Assembly: GCF_026262505.1 (NCBI RefSeq)
Contig: NC_067206.1
Location: 18,745,319-18,809,318 of the forward strand
Direction: 5' to 3'
Length of the DNA: 64,000 nucleotides
Origin: Trichomonas vaginalis G3
Taxonomy: Eukaryota > Parabasalia > Trichomonadida > Trichomonadidae
This document shows, piece after piece, positions 2 to 59,977 of this stretch. The notes beneath the pieces were generated by a model. That model had not been told where the DNA came from, ran no database searches, and worked only from the letters and a program-made list of their open reading frames with translations. The first letter of the stretch is position 1. Every line of letters starts with the position of its first letter. Position numbers and translations under genes: made by a program.

Positions 2-627
2 TTAGAAAACATCTGCGGTAAATTTAACTCTTCAATAGAGAATATGAAACTTATAGTTTGCAATGAACTTCAAAGTATAGATACAACAAAAGTTTTGAAC
101 TCAGATGCTTTGAAGAGTCTTATAACAGACAAAGTTGGAGTTGTTGAAAGAAAGTATAAAGACCAAAGAGTTTGTGAAAATGTTGCAAACTTCGTCATGG
201 TTTCAAACAATGTTGTTCCGATGAAGTTAGAAAGTTCTGACAGAAGATATGTAGTTGTCAGAACGTCAGATTCTCATATGCAAGATACAGAATATTTTGA
301 CGACTTAGCAGAAACTTTGACATCTGACTTTTACAACCACTTGTTCTCATATTTATGACATTAGATATTTCTAAGTTCAATCCAAGACAAATTCCACATA
401 CCGAAGAGAGACAAACATTGTTAGAAGCAAACAAGAGTGTTTATGAACTGTTTATAGATGAGACTAACTTTGAGTGTTTAGATGAAAGGTCATTGTACGA
501 TGAATATAAACAATATTGTCAAGAGTATGGTTATATGGCAGCGTCTAAACGAACATTCTTGGCAAATGTCAAAAATCTTTTAGATGTTCAGAACGGCGTA
601 TATACAAAGAAAAATTTTTCTGAGTAA
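2..627 (+). pseudogene. SF3 helicase, C-terminal half, frameshifted and cut by window edge
   Basis: Same protein as the intact helicase at 58742-59977. The window opens inside the ATPase domain, just after the Walker A region. The Walker B-like IVCNE, the sensor segment with VSNN and the DRRY arginine motif are present. A single base is missing near 354 relative to the R copy (ATATTT-ATGAC against ATATTTCATGAC). This ends the first frame at 358 and moves the C-terminal domain to the frame 355-627. The stop at 625-627 is followed directly by the promoter of the next gene; the NUMOD4 gene found at this place in R (58393-58707) is absent here. Confidence 0.85.
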
Positions 628-662
628 ATTTAAAAAAAATATTTTTTTATCCGATAGAAAAG

Positions 663-1081
663 ATGACGAAATTCATCTCAGTAAATAAGTACATGACAGA
701 AGTCAAAGAAGAACTAGACCCATTCACATATTTGAATGTTTACTTCTACCATTTTGAAAAGTCTACATTTGACAAAGTTTGGAACATCGAACCAGTTAAG
801 TTTGCTATTGTGACTAAAAATGGTGCGAAATTTGAAGACTTAGACATAGAAGGTTTGTTACAGTCAAAGAAAATTTTGACAGAAGGTTCTCAAACCTTAA
901 AGAAGGCAAAGCATACAAACTTGTTATACCTTATGAACCAAAGAAGACAGACGACTATGAATATTATGAGTCTAAGATAGTTGAAGTTCAAGGTAAATTG
1001 GGTAAAAAGATTTTAGAGTCTAAGCCAGTGTTTGCTCCTAAAGAGGAAGAGAACATTGACATTGACCCAGAAATGTTCTAA
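663..1081 (+). pseudogene. Maverick conserved protein (139-aa family), frameshifted
   Basis: Copy of the intact gene at 57922-58341. The first ~65 codons match closely. One base is missing near 859 (GTTACAG here, GTTAGCAG in R), so the reading frame stops early at 980 although the remaining sequence still matches to the stop at 1079-1081. It starts 35 bp after the helicase stop, behind the AT-rich box typical of element genes. Function unknown; an acidic C-terminus ends in a run of Glu/Asp. Confidence 0.7.
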
Positions 1082-49477: not shown

Positions 49478-50100
49478 AAAGGACGAAGTGGTTGAACGGT
49501 AGATTGTAGATTTGACACCAAAACAAACAAAAGTTCAGAACCATTGTAAAATCCCTGTCAAAGAAACTTACAGTATGTCAAGAGGAACTAAATTCTATAA
49601 TAAAAGTGCCAGAGATCTTGGATACAATCAACAGACCCTAACTATAAGTCACTTTTCATAGAATGGAACGGCTAGTATTCACAAAGAACAGACTCTCACA
49701 AATAAATATTGAAGTCTGAAGGAAGCTTTCGAGACAAAGATGGGAAGGTTCTTACTGACCAACAGTTCATTATAGAGACATGTCACTTGATTAGAGTCGA
49801 AATATTCTAAACTTTCACAACAAACAAAAAGTTGGAAAGGAAAACAAAAAACAATGGATATGATATTTATGCAAGACTGTTGACGACACACCTAGTCCTG
49901 CAAGTGAGGTAAAGTCAGAGAACGAAAAGTGACGAAAAACGATAGAAGAGAGAAAAACCAAAAACTGAAGATAACTCAAAACAAAGTTAAGTTTCTCAAA
50001 CTAAACAAGTCACCTTCCTTAGCTGGTAGGGGTTGGCGTCAAGACTTATGGTAGTGTGCAACGTCGCCGGGCTTGGGGGGTCAGTATTAAAGTAAAGTGA
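49478..50100 (+). pseudogene. second copy of 203-aa element gene, decayed
   Basis: Matches 41763-42374; the end replaces GGGTTATGTAAAG with a GC-rich insertion (GTGCAACGTCGCCGGGC, 50056-50072) not found elsewhere in the window. Confidence 0.55.
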
Positions 50101-50131
50101 AAAAAATATATTTTTTTTATTTTTAATTTGA

Positions 50132-50245
50132 AATGTACGCTTGAGGTTGTTGGAAAGACCGTCAGACAACATGTTTGCTAGAGATGAAGAGTATGAAATG
50201 GCATACCAATTTTTAAAACAAAAATATTTTAAACAAACATTTTTT
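50132..50245 (+). pseudogene. NUMOD4 start fragment
   Basis: ATGTACGCTTGAGGTTGTTGG is a damaged copy of the ATGTACGCTGAGTTTGTTGG start seen at 51480 and 58707. Only ~110 bp remain before the next copy begins. Confidence 0.5.
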
Positions 50246-50260
50246 ATTTTATTTGAAAAT

Positions 50261-50995
50261 GTACGGCTGAGTTTGTTGGAATAAAGACTTTGGAAAACTG
50301 TTTGTTAGATGAGCAAATTATGAAATTCACTGTTCTGAGCCTTTTGAAGTCAGAACCAAAAAGAACAAAAAGAGTTTTAGCGAATGGCGAGCGAAAAACG
50401 GATATGCTGTTATGAAGATGGGTTGGGAAAACCACTATTTTAAACATATTGTTCTTGCAACTCATTTTATACCGAACCCTAACAAATTTACCTCTTGTAG
50501 ACCATATAAACCGTTAAGAAACGACATTAGACTTGAAAAAACTTACGTTGGTCACTCGCTCGTTCTGAAAAAACAATAAGAACAAGGGTAGATTTAGAGA
50601 TATTTATTTCGAGATTTCGTCGACAAACTAGAAGATTGAAGTTAATTGAAATTACAGACATATGGTAAGCATACGTTTGAGTCTTTACTACTATAGCGAA
50701 GAAACAAGACTCTTTCTACTTTTATACGCGCCGTAAACTATAGGAAATTACAACCGTATGTTTTACTAAGGAAGGCTTATGCTTATGTATAACACTAGAG
50801 TACAGATGGAAAACACGTTCAAATACTTCTTAACAAATTCAAGAAGCTATATGGCCATTTACCATTTTAAAACAGTTATATTTTTACAATATTAAATGCT
50901 TTCAGGTTGAAAAAACAAAGAACAAATTAGTAGATACAAAAACGTTTGACTATATCTTTACAAACGCTGGTAGGAACAGTATATCAAGATGGAGA
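50261..50995 (+). pseudogene. NUMOD4-HNH endonuclease gene, frameshifted (copy 1)
   Basis: NUMOD4 start, then an HNH core with HIVLATHFIPNPN and, in shifted frame, DHIN and NDIRLE near 50510-50540. A C-terminal part includes VDELE-like, RKLYK-like and NKFKKLY segments (50600-50900). Family enzymes cut or nick specific DNA and often spread as homing genes. Confidence 0.6.
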
Positions 50996-51002
50996 AGTAA
51001 AC

Positions 51003-51437
51003 ATATGAGAAGGTCGACAAACTTTGTTAAAGGTTTTCTCCTTTTGTTTTGAAGTACGAATTCACTCAAGTCAAAGTGGCTTTAGTAACCACATGTAAAA
51101 CCTATTGTCCGAAACATTGGTCTTACCCTCAGTCTCGCAAAAGGCAGTCTTGACAACTACAAGCACATTCTTTCTCCGAAGAAATCAAACTCAAAGTGAA
51201 GGATTACTATGAGAACATTGACGCACTCATGACGAACGAAAAGGTCTATAACATAACTCATTGAAAGTGGTCATGGTCGGTGTAAAAGATGGGCTGTTTT
51301 AAGCTAGACAGAGTTTTATTCCTCCCCGAAGTTATGTTCTCTCGCAACGTGTGAAGTATGTGAGGGTGTGTCTGAAATACGGCAAAGAAATTAAAACATT
51401 GGCATGAAATCAGTAAAGAACGCTATTGCATGAAGTA
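51003..51437 (+). pseudogene. DNA polymerase 3' fragment
   Basis: Corresponds to 44110-44519, including the motif C region (YYENIDAL, about 51207-51231), with indels. The 5' two thirds of the gene are missing. Sandwiched between two NUMOD4-HNH copies. Confidence 0.7.
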
Positions 51438-51479
51438 AAACATTCGTTTTTAAAACACATTTTTTTATATTTATTTGAA

Positions 51480-52253
51480 ATGTACGCTGAGTTTGTTGGA
51501 ACAGACCGTTGGAAACTTGTTTGTTAGATGAGAAATATGTAAATTCACTGTTGTGAGTCTTCGATAGTCAGAAACAAAGACAAAGAGAGTTTTTAAGCGA
51601 ATGGAGCAAAATAACGGAATGCTAGGATGAGGATTTGTGGGAAACACATTACTTAAAAACATGTTTTCATTGACAACTCATTTATACCGACTCCTAAACA
51701 ATCATACCTCTTTAGACCATATAAACCGTATAAGAAAATGGAAAAAAACAAATAAGACTTTGAAAACTATACGTGAGGTCCACTCGTTATGAAAACAATA
51801 AGAACCTAGGATATTTCGAGATATTGTATTTCGAATTTGTCGACGAACTAGAGATGAAGGCAATTGAAAAATACAGACTATGGTAAGCACTCACGTTATG
51901 AGTTTATACTATAGCAGAAGAACAATAACTACTTTCTACTTTATACCGGCGCGTAAACTATAGGAAATTACAAGTATGTTTTACTAAGGAAGGCTATGCT
52001 TAATGTAAACACTAGAGATACAGACGATGGAAAACACGTTCAAATACTTCTTAACAAATTCAAGAAGCTATATGCATACCATTTAAAACGTCATATTTTT
52101 ACATATATTAAATTGCTTCAGGTTGAAAAAACAAAAACAAAAGTAGCAGATACAAAACCGTTAGACTATATCTTTACAAATACTGGTAGGACTATTTCAG
52201 ATGAAGAAATTTCATCCAATTGTCTTTCATATACAACTACGGAAAAGTGCTGA
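51480..52253 (+). pseudogene. NUMOD4-HNH endonuclease gene, frameshifted (copy 2)
   Basis: Same gene as 50261-50995. The longest open piece is the C-terminus 51996-52253 (NKFKKLYAYHLKRH; DYIFTNTGRTISDEE). Preceded by the AT-rich box TTTTTTTATATTTATTTGAA. Confidence 0.6.
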
Positions 52254-52586
52254 ATTCGACAAAAATGAGTTTTTGGTTGAAAAAGAGGTGGAGCCAAAAG
52301 TGGCTCGACCTCAAAACAACATTTTGTGAAGAATATACCAACCCGCGGAAAACAGGGGGTTGCTTTTTATACAAAGTCACCCCTTGAATTTGTCATGAAT
52401 TTCCTTAAGATAGAAAAAAAATATATTTTAGCGACCAGGTCACTCGCGTCACTCGGTCATTTTTAACTTCTCTGAAAAAGTGTGACAACATGACATTTTG
52501 ACAACAACACAGGAAATAGATTTCATCGTATATTTTTTGTTAAGACTTCATCGTATATGTTTTTGTCAAGACTTTCATCGTTGGTG
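52254..52586. repeat. intergenic hairpin block
   Basis: A GGTGGAGCCA-AAAG-TGGCTCGACC hairpin (52287-52310), an AACCCGCGGAAAACAGGGGGTT element (about 52340-52361), an AGCGACC...GGTCAT remnant (52431-52463) and degenerate TTGTCAAGACTT...CATCG units (52530-52580). Counterpart of 7045-7400. No gene. Confidence 0.7.
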
Positions 52587-52654
52587 GTCCGACGGTTAAG
52601 CCACAAACGAATGTCCGACGGTTAAGCCACAAACGAATGTCCGACGGTTAAGCC
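52587..52654. repeat. 26-bp tandem repeat
   Basis: GTCCGACGGTTAAGCCACAA plus ACGAAT, starting at 52587, 52613 and 52639 (last partial). The same sequence forms the 5' flank and first codons of the Pro-rich gene at 47275-47300. Confidence 0.85.
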
Positions 52655-52686
52655 AAAAATATTTTTTATTTTTATTGTAAAACAGT

Positions 52687-53199
52687 ATGACAGTCGAAGC
52701 AAAAACGTTCACGAACAAATCTAATGGCGAAACATTCACAAAAGGCACTTACAACGGTATTGAAGTCTTACGTAGAGACAAGGATGGTTATATAAATGCA
52801 ACAAATATGTGTCAGCAGTTTAGGAAAGACTTTAGAAGGTTGTTGGAAAATAAGTCCTGGGAAGAGATTTTAAGGCATTTTTGAAGAATATACCAACCGC
52901 GAAAACAGCGGGTTGCTTTTTATACAAAATTCATGCAGGAATTCCTGATGAAATCAAACAGGTTAGAGGAATGTATGTAGACCCAAGACTCGTAAACTAT
53001 ATAGCAATGTGGGCTTCTCCAAAATATTGTATAGCAGTTTGAGAAAAATTCTGGACTCCATAGACAAGAAAGTTCATGAGAAATTAGATGAAGAAGAACT
53101 TGAAGATACAGCAGAGAATGCAAAACCTTTGTTCGAAGAAGAAGTTAGAAAAATGCATGGAAAAACAAATAGAACATGAACGTAGATATGTTCTGTTAT
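52687..53199 (+). pseudogene. KilA-N gene interrupted by a hairpin element
   Basis: Canonical KilA-N start (YNGIEVLRRDKDGYINATNM, then LLENKSWEEILRHF) stops at 52884 where a 46-bp hairpin element is inserted. The domain resumes (GMYVDPRLVNYIAMWASPKY), has one internal stop (GCAGTTTGAG) and ends in a Glu-rich helix. It would be about 165 aa without the insertion. Confidence 0.65.
52882..52927. repeat. CCGC/GCGG hairpin element inside KilA-N gene
   Basis: GAAGAATATACCAACCGCGA then AAACAGCGGGTTGCTTTTTA. Stem AACC(C)GC/GCGGGTT. Other copies are at 52328-52372 and, reversed, 7301-7343, both intergenic. Confidence 0.7.
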
Positions 53200-53343
53200 A
53201 GAGACTCGCCATACGAACTAGACCAATGGGAACAAGAAGATTTAAAGAGAGAATTTAGAGAATATGAACTCGCTAAGATAACATTAGAAGCTGCAGAAAA
53301 GAAGTTAAAAAGTTTGGGGTCGTTTTGTAAAAAAATATTGTGA
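53176..53343 (+). CDS. small charged element protein (55 aa)
   Basis: MNVDMFCYRDSPYELDQWEQ, then a helix rich in Glu/Lys (REFREYELAKITLEAAEKKL). The start overlaps the KilA-N 3' end by about 24 bp, typical of tightly packed element genes. A decayed copy lies at 6365-6560. Unknown function. Confidence 0.5.
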   Translation: MNVDMFCYRDSPYELDQWEQEDLKREFREYELAKITLEAAEKKLKSLGSFCKKIL

Positions 53344-53662
53344 GTAAATGAACCATTTTTTTTCGACAAAAAATATATTTTAGGGTAGATGTTAGATCTA
53401 ACCTGTCTTCTACCCTCTTTTCTACCCTCTTGAATTTTCATGAATTTATACAGAAATGCTTGTTTTGAGGTCGAGCCACTTTTGGCTCCACCGTATTCTT
53501 TCAACCAAAACTCATGAATTCGGCAAAAATATATTTTAGGTAGAAGTTAGATATAACCTCTTTTCTAACCTCTTTTCTACCCTCTTGAATTGTCATAGTT
53601 TTCCCGAAATAAAAAATAAAGTGGTTTTTTTAAAAAAATATTTTTTATTTTTTTGTAAGAAC
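53344..53662. repeat. intergenic palindromes and hairpin
   Basis: GTTAGATCTAAC cluster with TTTTCTACCCTC (53384-53430), a GGTCGAGCCACTTTTGGCTC hairpin (53471-53494, inverted relative to 52287), a second GTTAGATATAAC cluster (53536-53585) and the AT-rich promoter box of the next gene. No coding sequence. Confidence 0.75.
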
Positions 53663-54363
53663 ATGTTGCAACAACAGCACCAAACCGTTAGTCATGACCC
53701 AACTTCAATGTTAGTAGAGATGAAAGCTTCATTCCTTCTTCATATACTTTCGAAACAAAAATCCAGAAGATAAAGCAAGAACTTTTAACAAGTACTTTGG
53801 ACTGTTTGTGCGAAAGATGAAACAAATGAACAGTATCTTTATGACATGCAGGACCTCATCGACCATTTACCCAAATTGCCTGAAATCCAGCAACAAAAGC
53901 TACTATTCCAGAATTCGATGAAATAGAAGTCAAAGCAACTGACTCAGTAGAAATAAAGAAGTTCATACGAAAGGTTAACTATGAGTTTCTTGGATTTCAT
54001 TGCAACCACAAAGTCATGGACAAAAGATTGCGATATGGTATATAAGAACATCTCTGACATATACAAATCTGGGGAGTTTAAGACCTACGACAACTTTGTT
54101 TCGTTAGTTGCTAATGTGTATGGCAGATAAGGAAAAGATAAAGATAGAAGAGGTAAGATATGGAATGAACAGAATAAAACCCGCAACTTTTGAGTTAAAG
54201 AGAGCAATTGACGCCTTAGTCCATACTACAGGTAAGGTTTCAGAATATAACGCAAAAATGAACCCGCCAATGTTTCAAAATGTAAGCAGCCATTAGGAAA
54301 TATAACTACTCGTCAAAGAGATAGAACGTATGAGAAACGACTATGCTGACTTAAAGAAAGAAT
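53663..54363 (+). pseudogene. 304-aa element gene, 3' third lost
   Basis: Homologous to 4921-5835 from the start (ATGTTGCAACAACAGCACCA) through about codon 235, with several indels. It breaks off at GACTTAAAGAAAGAA where a KilA-N/MUG113 gene begins. The last ~20 bp of the gene reappear after that gene at 54988-55008. Confidence 0.7.
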
Positions 54364-54972
54364 ATGTCAAACATTGAGTTTGAACAGTTTGAAGATAGAC
54401 AATGACACCAAAGTGGTAGAATAGGTATTTAAACGTAAGATACTCAAAGAAATACAAACAAATATTCTTTGTCAGACATTTTATCTCCATCTGGAAAGAA
54501 AGCAAAGGACTGGGTTAGAATTGCTTCTAGTCAGAAAATTTTGACAAGAAATCCTGAGCTTATGATATCGGTAAGATTCTATGGAACTACAGCATATCTC
54601 ATCGACAAAAGTCTTATACCAATAGTTTTGTTATGGTTAGACCCAGTTGTTGGATATAACTTCATAACATATGGTTTATTCGACTCAGAACGTTGCAGTG
54701 AAGGCTTACTTTACATCGTTCAGAAACCGAAGGACTTCAACACAAAAAGATATAAGATAGGAAGAACATATAATATAACTCTAAGATATGACAGTACAGT
54801 CAATAGAGTCAAGGTTGTGTTGGTTAACGATATGAGAGCTGCTGAAACAGAACTACTTGAAAAGTTTGAGAAAATGTATGGTGCTCCCATAAAAGGTAAA
54901 GAAACGTTTGAAGTAGATGAGATAGATAAAGCTATAAAATTATTTGACGAAGTTGCTGAAAAATACATGTAA
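54364..54972 (+). pseudogene. KilA-N / MUG113 protein, N-terminus frameshifted
   Basis: Codons for MSNIEFEQFEDRQ (54364) match the L copy's start, then indels near 54400-54460. From 54469 to the stop the frame is intact (167 codons) and nearly identical to 3861-4475, including the MUG113 part (GLLYIVQ, YKIGRT, AAETELLEKFEK). Confidence 0.7.
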
Positions 54973-57921: not shown

Positions 57922-58341
57922 TTAGAACATTTCTGGGTCAATGTCAATGTTCTCTTCCTCTTTAGGAGCAAACACTGGCTTAGACTCTAAAATCTTTTTA
58001 CCCAATTTACCTTGAACTTCAACTATCTTAGACTCATAATATTCATAGTCGTCTGCTTTCTTTGGTTCATAAGGTATAACAAGTTTGTATGCTTTGCCTT
58101 CTTTAAGGTTTGAAAACCTTCTGTCAAAATTTTCTTTGACTGCTAACAAACCTTCTATGTCTAAGTCTTCAAATTTCGCACCATTTTTAGTCACAATAGC
58201 AAACTTAACTGGTTCGATGTTCCAAACTTTGTCAAATGTAGACTTTTCAAAATGGTAGAAGTAAACATTCAAATAAGCGAATGGGTCTAGTTCTTCTTTG
58301 ACTTCTGTCATGTACTTATTTACTGAGATGAATTTCGTCAT
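57922..58341 (-). CDS. conserved element protein (139 aa)
   Basis: MTKFISVNKYMTEVKEELDP; beta/alpha mix with VKFAIVTKNGAKFEDLDIEG and AYKLVIPYEPKK, acidic end ENIDIDPEMF. It could be a single-stranded-DNA-binding-like protein by its replication-gene neighbourhood, but this is only a guess. Convergent with 57450-57905 (16 bp between stops). Confidence 0.65.
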   Translation of the reverse strand: MTKFISVNKYMTEVKEELDPFAYLNVYFYHFEKSTFDKVWNIEPVKFAIVTKNGAKFEDLDIEGLLAVKENFDRRFSNLKEGKAYKLVIPYEPKKADDYEYYESKIVEVQGKLGKKILESKPVFAPKEEENIDIDPEMF

Positions 58342-58380
58342 CTTTTCTATCGGATAAAAAAAAATATTTTTTTTAAAATT
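58342..58380 (-). promoter_or_regulatory. AT-rich element promoter box
   Basis: On the minus strand AAAAAATATTTTTTTTTATC then CGATAGAAAAG and ATG. Identical in kind to the box at 628-662 in L. Confidence 0.5.
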
Positions 58381-58392
58381 TACTCAGAAAAA

Positions 58393-58707
58393 TTATTTCT
58401 TTCTATATTTGCCATTCCGAACTTCGAAAAGATGTTTTATACCAGCATAGAATTTTTCTCTAGAGCTTGGTCTTATATCGTTTTCATGACAATATTTTCT
58501 ATATTCTTCATATAAAGCCTTTTTTTCATACATTTCATAAGGACAATCTAACCAGAATAGCGCATATCCGTTATTTTGCTCCCATCCGCTTAAAACTCTT
58601 TTTGTCTCTTTGTTTCTGACTTCAAATGACTCACAACAGTGAATTTCATATTTCTCATCTAACAAACAAGTTTCCCAACGGTCTTCTCCAACAAACTCAG
58701 CGTACAT
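58393..58707 (-). CDS. NUMOD4 domain fused to SF3-helicase C-terminal domain
   Basis: 104 aa. Residues 1-55 match NUMOD4 (DRWETCLLDEKYEIHCC; EVRNKETKRVLSGW; NNGYALFWL) and have the same start as the HNH genes at 50261 and 51480. Instead of an HNH core, residues about 60-104 (KALYEEYRKYCHENDIRPSS, REKFYAGIKHLFEVRNGKY) match the last ~45 residues of the neighbouring helicase. The 3' flank TTTTTCTGAGTAAATTT is the helicase's own 3' end. Absent from element L at 627-662. Origin: probably recombination of an invading endonuclease gene with the helicase tail. Confidence 0.75.
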   Translation of the reverse strand: MYAEFVGEDRWETCLLDEKYEIHCCESFEVRNKETKRVLSGWEQNNGYALFWLDCPYEMYEKKALYEEYRKYCHENDIRPSSREKFYAGIKHLFEVRNGKYRKK

Positions 58708-58741
58708 TTCAAATAAAATAAAAAAATACTGTTTTTAAAAT

Positions 58742-59977
58742 TTACTCAGAAAAATTTTTCTTTGTATATACGCCGTTCTGAACATCTAAAAGATTTTTGA
58801 CATTTGCCAAGAATGTACGTTTAGACGCTGCCATATAACCATATTCTTGACAATACTGTTTATATGAATCGTACAATGACCTTTCATCTAATGACACAAA
58901 GTCAGTTTCATCTACGAACAGTTCATAAACACTCTTGTTTGCTTCTAACAATGTTTGTCTCTCTTCGGTATATGGAATTTGTCTTGGATTGAACTTAGAA
59001 ATATCTAATGTCATGAAATATGAGAACAAGTGGTTGTAAAAGTCAGATGTCAAACATTCTGACAAAGCGTCAAAATATTCTGTATCTTGCATACGAGAAT
59101 CTGACGTTCTGACAACTACATATCTTCTGTCAGAACTTTCTAACTTCATCGGAACAGCATTGTTTGAAACCATAATGAAGTTTGCAACATTTTCACAAAC
59201 TCTTTGGTCTTTATATTTTCTTTCAACAACTCCAACTTTATCTGTTATAAGACTCTTCAAAGCATCTGAGTTCAAAACTTTTGTTGTATCTATACTTTGA
59301 AGTTCATTGCAAACTATAAGTTTCATATTCTCAATTGAAGAGTTAAACTTGCCACAGATGTTTTCTATGTTTGTCATATTCGGATTCGAATAACCTTCTA
59401 ACAGTTTGCACAAAATATCTGTAAAGAATGTGTTCTTACCTGTTCCTTGTTTTCCAATTATAATGAGAGCAGTTTCATTTTTAGCACTTGGATGTTGTAA
59501 GATGTTTGCAAACCAACATAAGATATACTCATAAACCTTTTCGTTTCCATTGCATATAATTTCTTTGACATGGTCTAACCAAGCTTCTATAATATATTCT
59601 TTCCATTCTACTTGTTCATATTTATATCCAGTGAAGATAGAATAGAAGTTTGGAGAAGGTGTATAAAACTTTATACCACGAACTGAAAAATCTTCTAACT
59701 TTGACAATAAGATATCCCAAGCATCTAACATCTTCATGCCAACTTGTACGACTTTTATTTTCTTAAGTTTCTGTCTACATTCTTGTTCTGAAACTATTGT
59801 CGCTCTTGGTTTGTTAAAGACAACATCCCATTCTTTCATGACATAACATTCTGGGGCAGAGTCGACATAAATGACTAAACGTTTCAAATTCTCGACTGCT
59901 TTGTTATAGTCTCTAAATGGACACATATTTCTGAAGGCTTGGAAGTCATAAAAATCTGAAACATCTATTCTGTACAT
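58742..59977 (-). CDS. superfamily 3 helicase (D5-like, DUF5906 type)
   Basis: 411 aa, intact. Walker A GKQGTGKN at 175-182, Walker B-like IVCNE at 221-225, motif C FIMVSNN at 267-273 and arginine finger DRRY near 283. The C-terminal winged-helix-like tail (320-411) ends QNGVYTKKNFSE. No primase domain is seen in the N-terminal 150 residues. It unwinds DNA for element replication with the protein-primed polymerase. The AT-rich promoter box lies directly upstream. Confidence 0.9.
   Translation of the reverse strand: MYRIDVSDFYDFQAFRNMCPFRDYNKAVENLKRLVIYVDSAPECYVMKEWDVVFNKPRATIVSEQECRQKLKKIKVVQVGMKMLDAWDILLSKLEDFSVRGIKFYTPSPNFYSIFTGYKYEQVEWKEYIIEAWLDHVKEIICNGNEKVYEYILCWFANILQHPSAKNETALIIIGKQGTGKNTFFTDILCKLLEGYSNPNMTNIENICGKFNSSIENMKLIVCNELQSIDTTKVLNSDALKSLITDKVGVVERKYKDQRVCENVANFIMVSNNAVPMKLESSDRRYVVVRTSDSRMQDTEYFDALSECLTSDFYNHLFSYFMTLDISKFNPRQIPYTEERQTLLEANKSVYELFVDETDFVSLDERSLYDSYKQYCQEYGYMAASKRTFLANVKNLLDVQNGVYTKKNFSE

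What the first reader, a model, noticed from the sequence alone, without database searches (positions are those of the whole stretch)
58381..58741. NUMOD4 domain carrying a duplicated helicase C-terminus, present in one Maverick copy and absent in the other
Seen: the 104-aa gene joins a NUMOD4 start (shared with HNH genes at 50261 and 51480) to about 45 residues homologous to the SF3 helicase tail, and its 3' flank repeats the helicase's own stop region. In L the helicase stop (627) is followed directly by the next promoter. Inference: an endonuclease gene landed at the helicase 3' end and captured the tail, a homing-like strategy that regenerates the target's end and may add a regulator that mimics the helicase tail.
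Basis: partly seen in the sequence, partly recalled or inferred. Interest (0 to 1): 0.75.

Follow-up and report, generated by a model that had tools for sequence, protein, structure and literature searches.

The report
Hybrid gene beside a transposon helicase
Beside the DNA-unwinding enzyme gene of a giant Trichomonas transposon lies a slot that is empty, or holds a DNA-cutting enzyme gene, or a free-standing relative of that unwinding enzyme's tail, or, as here, a fusion of the last two that looks made by recombination.

Summary
The 104-aa ORF (58393-58707, minus) joins the start of an HNH endonuclease gene (residues 1-49, 94% identical to P0008) to a 57-residue module homologous to the winged-helix tail of the adjacent helicase (E 3e-11). 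Its stop overlaps a 25-nt exact copy of the helicase stop region. The genome is Trichomonas vaginalis G3.

The helicase-DUF4108 gap is a polymorphic slot. Pattern counts: 995 empty-type places; 105 with an HNH-type start, 100 of them listed (21 HNH genes, 30 hybrids, 49 unsorted). Other copies hold a free-standing tail gene ('MTEKLTF' start), also found at a second site (74 places). The window gene is one of nine 'long' hybrids, joined at 8 bp (GGATATGC) shared by HNH and tail genes. A short HNH-tail hybrid (24 places) and a DUF4108-tail hybrid (one seen) have separate joints; all three are in frame. So an endonuclease gene does sit at the helicase 3' end, but the hybrid's tail comes from an older paralogue, not from the resident helicase. 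Local regeneration of the helicase end is not supported; 'NUMOD4' is unconfirmed. The tail module varies far less than its flanks in the loci read, so it probably spread among elements. Function is inferred: DNA-binding decoy or regulator.

The parts
58742..59977 (-). SF3 (DUF5906/D5-type) helicase of the right Maverick, 411 aa, with its own C-terminal winged helix (residues about 350-410)
   Evidence: PF19263 E 4e-24; Pox_D5 over residues 363-408 above its cut-off; AlphaFold model pLDDT 85.9, best PDB matches NrS-1 and SaPI5 primase-helicases
58708..58741 (-). spacer between helicase stop and hybrid gene; its downstream part (ATTTTTTTATTTTATTTGAA) is that of the HNH gene L081
   Evidence: compared with HNH gene L081 and empty sites
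58393..58707 (-). 104-aa hybrid gene: HNH-gene start plus winged-helix-type tail module
   Evidence: nine places genome-wide with this junction at up to 2 mismatches
58562..58569 (-). 8-bp junction GGATATGC shared by the HNH gene and the free-standing tail gene
   Evidence: junction comparison with L081 and L010
58396..58566 (-). tail module, residues 48-104
   Evidence: homology to helicase 351-407; model helices 47-54, 62-75, 83-93 and strands 94-97, 100-103; VIA-align matches span 40-104
58370..58394 (-). 25-nt copy of the helicase stop region at the hybrid gene's stop
   Evidence: exact repeat of 58732-58756
58732..58756 (-). helicase stop region
57922..58341 (-). DUF4108 gene, right-hand border of the slot
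   Evidence: PF13390 E 2.7e-65
355..662 (+). left Maverick: helicase 3' end (stop 625-627) and spacer with no gene in the slot (empty state)
663..980 (+). left Maverick: DUF4108 gene start directly after the empty slot (frame ends early)
50261..50822 (+). broken HNH gene remnant in the right Maverick
   Evidence: tblastn with P0008, pieces in two frames
51480..52043 (+). second broken HNH gene remnant
   Evidence: tblastn with P0008, pieces in two frames

Best explanation
The gap between the helicase and DUF4108 genes of T. vaginalis Mavericks is a cassette slot bordered by an AT-rich spacer. Its states are: empty; an HNH endonuclease gene; a free-standing gene ('MTEKLTF' type) that ends in a diverged paralogue of the helicase's winged-helix tail; and in-frame hybrids. 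The window gene is a hybrid made by one short-homology crossover (GGATATGC) between an HNH-occupied and a tail-occupied slot: left side from the HNH allele, right side from the tail allele. Copies then spread between elements by recombination. Shown: slot states, junctions, frames, homology, low divergence of the module in the loci read. Inferred: single crossover or template switch, and spread by gene conversion. Inferred with low confidence: the product lacks the nuclease domain and acts, if at all, as a small DNA-binding protein that competes with or tunes the helicase's winged helix (about 0.35 within this explanation); otherwise it is a by-product of recombination among largely silent elements.
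For: Free-standing tail genes P0001-P0007 lack the HNH start but share the module. 995 places of empty type, 0 in the reversed control; 105 helicase ends followed by an HNH-type start, control 0. Of the 100 listed, 21 coincide with HNH genes, 8 with long and 22 with short hybrids, 49 are unsorted. The 3' sides of five HNH genes at the slot were read: 5 of 5 end in their own stop and run into the spacer and a DUF4108 start (one DUF4108 breaks off early). Three separate in-frame junctions with 8, 5 and 6 shared bases. In 33 distinct loci the module has synonymous diversity 0.0098 against 0.16 (helicase tail), 0.053 (mid helicase) and 0.076 (DUF4108); 0 of 500 bootstraps reversed this. In the nine long hybrids the last three of four gene windows average 99.5-99.7% identity, while flanking windows average 90.6-99.9% and fall to 79% in the worst pair. 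L006 carries a helicase whose last codons are of tail-gene type: exchange between the two.
Against: A crossover between two elements cannot be told from a deletion inside an element that once held HNH and tail genes in tandem. Tail loci were drawn from the 150 best-scoring matches out of 3626 first-look candidates, which favours near-identical modules. MTEKLTF genes at the slot were never counted genome-wide (tool busy). The 995 'empty' places cannot be told by that pattern from DUF4108-tail hybrids such as L035. Some flank stretches are as uniform as the hybrid (99.6% at 300-400 bases downstream), so local uniformity alone does not prove mobility of the gene. Constraint on the module is weak: pN/pS 0.70 on few changes, and several copies are frameshifted upstream of it. 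Published RNA-seq passages report that 25 of 38,656 TE ORFs passed the expression threshold in G3 (PMC7845603).
Confidence: 0.75

Rival explanations
1. One reading: an endonuclease gene inserted at the helicase 3' end carrying or copying the resident helicase's tail, like the mobile ORFs of fungal mitochondria that bring a spare C-terminus.
For: HNH genes do sit at the site; the hybrid's stop overlaps an exact 25-nt copy of the helicase stop region. Fungal precedent read in passages (PMC3630166).
Against: HNH genes at the slot carry no tail copy (5 of 5 whose 3' side was read). The module is only 35% identical to the resident tail (20 of 57) and exists as its own gene. Post-tail flanks do not resemble the local helicase more than other loci's. 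Among the occupied loci read, only L006 has tail-type last helicase codons. Of the 25 metagenomic helicase rows printed (of 112), 23 score higher with the helicase tail than with the module, P0116 and P0075 the other way, so the module does not look like a displaced native end.
Confidence: 0.08
2. Tandem then deletion: elements first held an HNH gene followed by a tail gene in the same slot, and a deletion between short repeats fused them.
For: Gives the same junctions; L009 shows that internal deletions happen within the hybrid.
Against: No tandem was seen, but few loci tell: 5 of 5 HNH genes at the slot whose 3' side was read are followed directly by DUF4108 sequence.
Confidence: 0.15
3. Neutral debris (about function, so it can hold together with the best explanation): silent Mavericks recombine freely and the hybrids are chance products with no protein made.
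For: Weak constraint, frameshifted copies, very low TE ORF expression in published G3 data (PMC7845603 passages), mosaic identity along the elements.
Against: Three independent 5'-end swaps all keep the module intact and in frame (by my estimate about 1 in 27 by chance), and the module is far less diverse than its flanks.
Confidence: 0.4

Closest known systems
Free-standing HNH homing endonuclease genes (intronless homing, phage T4 and relatives; phage enzyme 1u3e as sequence relative)
   Same: An HNH_3 gene between genes, with occupied and empty sites beside a replication gene; such genes spread with flanking co-conversion (PMC2988022, passages)
   Different: The window gene keeps only the first 49 residues and has no HNH catalytic region; cleavage by the full HNH protein is untested
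Mobile ORFs of fungal mitochondria (Allomyces atp6; Glomus atp6, atp9, cox2, nad3)
   Same: Endonuclease element beside a host gene together with an extra, diverged copy of that gene's C-terminus (PMC3630166, passages)
   Different: There the imported end is fused to the host gene's upstream part; here the helicase keeps its own end and the extra copy is a separate gene
C-terminal winged helix of D5/P4-type primase-helicases (Pox_D5, PF03288)
   Same: Sequence homology and predicted fold of residues 48-104
   Different: Free-standing or fused to an unrelated start, without the ATPase
HNH_3 genes of polinton-like viruses (for example NUMOD4-HNH_3-AP2 in a Symbiodinium contig)
   Same: HNH endonucleases, free-standing or fused, in related elements (PMC12220804, passages)
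   Different: No fusion of an HNH start to a helicase winged helix appeared in the passages read

Membership tests
Free-standing HNH homing endonuclease | HNH catalytic domain in the window gene | tested here: not met
   Window gene has no HNH_3 hit; it lacks the region (59-102) where P0008 has it
Free-standing HNH homing endonuclease | HNH catalytic domain in the donor gene found at the same slot | tested here: met
   P0008 PF13392 E 2.5e-7 above cut-off; 21 of 100 listed slot places coincide with HNH genes, one of them with an internal stop
Free-standing HNH homing endonuclease | Occupied and empty sites in related copies | tested here: met
   995 empty-type places, 105 HNH-type starts
Free-standing HNH homing endonuclease | Cuts the empty allele and not the occupied one | not testable with these tools
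   needs purified protein
NUMOD4 (PF07463) | Match to the Pfam model | tested here: not met
   0 matches in the genome; 2 of 14 control genomes ring, 1 over the cut-off; none for P0008 at E<=10
D5/P4-type helicase C-terminal winged helix | Sequence homology to a helicase tail | tested here: met
   E 3e-11 over 57 residues; the helicase tail itself passes the Pox_D5 cut-off, the small gene falls below it at E 0.0014
D5/P4-type helicase C-terminal winged helix | Winged-helix fold of the module | tested here: inconclusive
Fungal mitochondrial mobile ORF with C-terminal duplication | Endonuclease ORF plus extra copy of the neighbouring gene's C-terminus | tested here: inconclusive
   Only the hybrids join an HNH piece and a tail copy; HNH genes at the slot carry none (5 of 5 read)
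Fungal mitochondrial mobile ORF with C-terminal duplication | Imported end fused in frame to the host gene in place of its own | tested here: not met
   Helicases at the occupied slots read keep their own end; only L006 shows tail-type last codons

The most novel reading that the evidence does not exclude
The slot beside the helicase is an arena in which an endonuclease gene and a mobile, free-standing relative of the helicase's DNA-binding winged helix compete. The winged helix acts as an interference or copy-control factor against rival Mavericks and gains new N-termini by repeated in-frame exchanges.
Probability: 0.15. Interest if true: 0.8.

Novelty: new variant of a known kind. Interest (0 to 1): 0.5.

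Why it matters
More than a thousand copies of one slot in a single genome show how an endonuclease gene between genes exchanges its ends with neighbouring cassettes and gives rise to in-frame hybrids. They also reveal a free-standing relative of a helicase winged helix that sits in diverged giant transposons with far less divergence than its flanks, which makes the question of interference between Maverick copies testable.

Tried and rejected
Displaced native C-terminus (fungal mobile-ORF order): rejected. 30 of 30 helicase loci L051-L080, 26 of them empty, end in the helicase-type sequence, and 23 of the 25 helicase rows printed score higher with the helicase tail (exceptions P0116, P0075).

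Capture of the tail from another sampled helicase lineage: among 112 matches (some of them fragments without a tail) none comes nearer to the module than the T. vaginalis helicase tail (score 113, against at most 66). An unsampled lineage stays possible.

Regeneration of the local helicase end: not supported.

I first thought that HNH genes lie only elsewhere in the element; one search corrected this.

NUMOD4: not found. NCBIfam gave no family for P0008 and a weak primase match for the hybrid; PHROGs gave HNH families for P0008 and weak primase families for the tail genes.

Relatives of P0001 in viral contigs: 4 stretches matched a pattern, none confirmed. Genome-wide counts of MTEKLTF genes at the slot and of HNH right flanks did not complete, the machine being busy (from and from then on, last tries).

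Papers: the listings showed no title or abstract start that describes this slot or hybrid. Passages only, by word search, were read in PMC10120064, PMC12220804, PMC12695648, PMC2988022, PMC3630166 and PMC7845603.

Full report
What is there. The window is G000:C4:18745319-18809318 of a 180.85 Mb assembly; matched protein records name Trichomonas vaginalis G3. At 58393-58707 on the minus strand is an open 104-aa gene between the helicase (58742-59977) and a DUF4108 gene (57922-58341). Residues 1-49 match the start of an HNH_3 endonuclease gene at 94% (P0008). Residues 48-104 are homologous to helicase residues 351-407 (20 of 57 identical, E 3e-11; score 113 against a shuffled maximum of 58). DNA similarity finishes in a 25-nt exact repeat that includes the helicase stop.

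The tail gene exists on its own. A protein search found nine relatives. P0001-P0007 share the tail module but begin with an unrelated sequence (MTEKLTFYIAP...), P0008 is the HNH gene, P0009 a fragment with an HNH-type start inside. In the genome, 150 of 3626 first-look candidates were scored. Of the first 30 loci, L001-L009 are hybrids; of the other 21, 20 have the MTEKLTF gene between helicase and DUF4108, and L011 has it elsewhere. That second site, upstream of a gene of which 501 residues were scanned without a Pfam family over its cut-off, is marked by 74 places at up to 1 mismatch, control 0 (L011, L034, L037, L045-L047 and L049 are among them). L031 has the same neighbours but not that exact end.

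The slot. Among the 30 helicase loci nearest the window's helicase (30 of 101 scored), 26 are empty, 2 carry the long hybrid (one is the window) and 2 the MTEKLTF gene. Genome-wide, an exact pattern for helicase stop, spacer and DUF4108 start occurs 995 times, its reversed control never. It misses variants, and it also takes in DUF4108-tail hybrids such as L035. Helicase stop followed by an HNH-type start occurs 105 times, control 0. Of the 100 places listed, 8 are long hybrids, 22 short hybrids and 21 HNH genes out of the 150 listed (one with an internal stop); 49 are unsorted. One long hybrid (L006) and two short ones fall outside the listed places. The 3' sides of five HNH genes at the slot were read: all five end in their own stop and run into the spacer and a DUF4108 start, which in one breaks off early. 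So the HNH gene is a complete cassette there, with no helicase tail copy in these five.

How the hybrid arose. Compared with one HNH gene (L081) and one tail gene (L010), the long hybrid follows the HNH gene up to GGATATGC and the tail gene from there. Nine places carry this junction at up to 2 mismatches, control 0. The short hybrid (24 places, control 0) joins the HNH start to the tail gene at AGACC, further upstream in the tail gene, so it is a separate event. L035 joins the DUF4108 start to the tail gene at AGATAA. In each case the left half matches one slot state (HNH or empty) and the right half the tail state, so one crossover each suffices. All three keep frame; by my estimate this would be about 1 in 27 by chance. 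A tandem-then-deletion history is not excluded.

Spread. In 34 of the 50 loci L001-L050 all four coding pieces could be read (33 distinct); the other 16 were left out. Synonymous diversity was 0.0098 in the tail module, 0.16 in the neighbouring helicase tail, 0.053 in mid helicase and 0.076 in DUF4108; in 0 of 500 bootstraps was the module as diverse as a flank. Across the nine long hybrids the last three of four gene windows average 99.5-99.7% identity and the first 92%, because of L009's deletion; flanking windows average 90.6-99.9% with a lowest pair of 79%. Some flank stretches are thus as uniform as the hybrid, so mosaic exchange is general. On a tree of helicase 3' ends (70 rows; three duplicate loci were left out, and loci without a readable helicase end did not enter) the empty label needs 10 changes, of which well-supported branches force 3; labels are nevertheless clustered, 0 of 500 shuffles being as low. 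Bias: loci were picked by similarity to the window's gene or helicase.

Against local regeneration. The sequence after the tail gene's stop is no closer to the local helicase's post-stop sequence than to that of other loci (3.08 against 2.89 mismatches in 20, 37 loci). The copy of the helicase end therefore travels with the cassette or is old. L006 shows exchange between the two tails: its helicase ends in tail-gene codons.

Function. The region of P0008 that carries HNH (59-102) is absent from the hybrid, so nuclease activity is not expected. A small DNA-binding protein that competes with or tunes the helicase is the most likely role if there is one; confidence is low. Constraint is weak (pN/pS 0.70 on few changes) and published passages report very few expressed TE ORFs (PMC7845603).

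Verdict. The account changes from capture of the tail to recombination between two occupants of a polymorphic slot.

Noticed in passing
P0083 (T. vaginalis protein record): A protein named 'P270 surface immunogen-like' begins with about 125 residues of the Maverick helicase N-terminus (93% identical over 34% of the helicase): a transposon start joined to a surface-protein frame.
   Followed up: no
window 49800-54400: The HNH genes and their neighbours in the right Maverick are broken by frameshifts while most of 54.5-63.8 kb is open: degraded or poorly assembled stretch.
   Followed up: partly
window 663, 5835, 52687, 53663, 58341, 59977 and others: An AT-rich spacer (AAAATATTTTTTTAT and variants) stands just before 12 ATG codons found, several of them Maverick gene starts; shared spacers may be joints at which gene cassettes recombine. 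No chance control was run.
   Followed up: partly
P0001-P0007; L045-L049: The MTEKLTF tail gene has a short repeat (PQYIDIELN.E.E and variants) whose copy number varies among copies.
   Followed up: no
L081, L082, L083, L084-L088: The HNH gene sits in at least three different intergenic places of Mavericks.
   Followed up: partly
L006: A helicase whose last codons and stop are of tail-gene type, evidence of conversion between tail gene and helicase.
   Followed up: partly
helicase codons 176-225 (L051-L080): Synonymous diversity peaks at 0.27-0.28 in mid helicase against 0.03-0.18 elsewhere (29 of 30 copies); unexplained.
   Followed up: no
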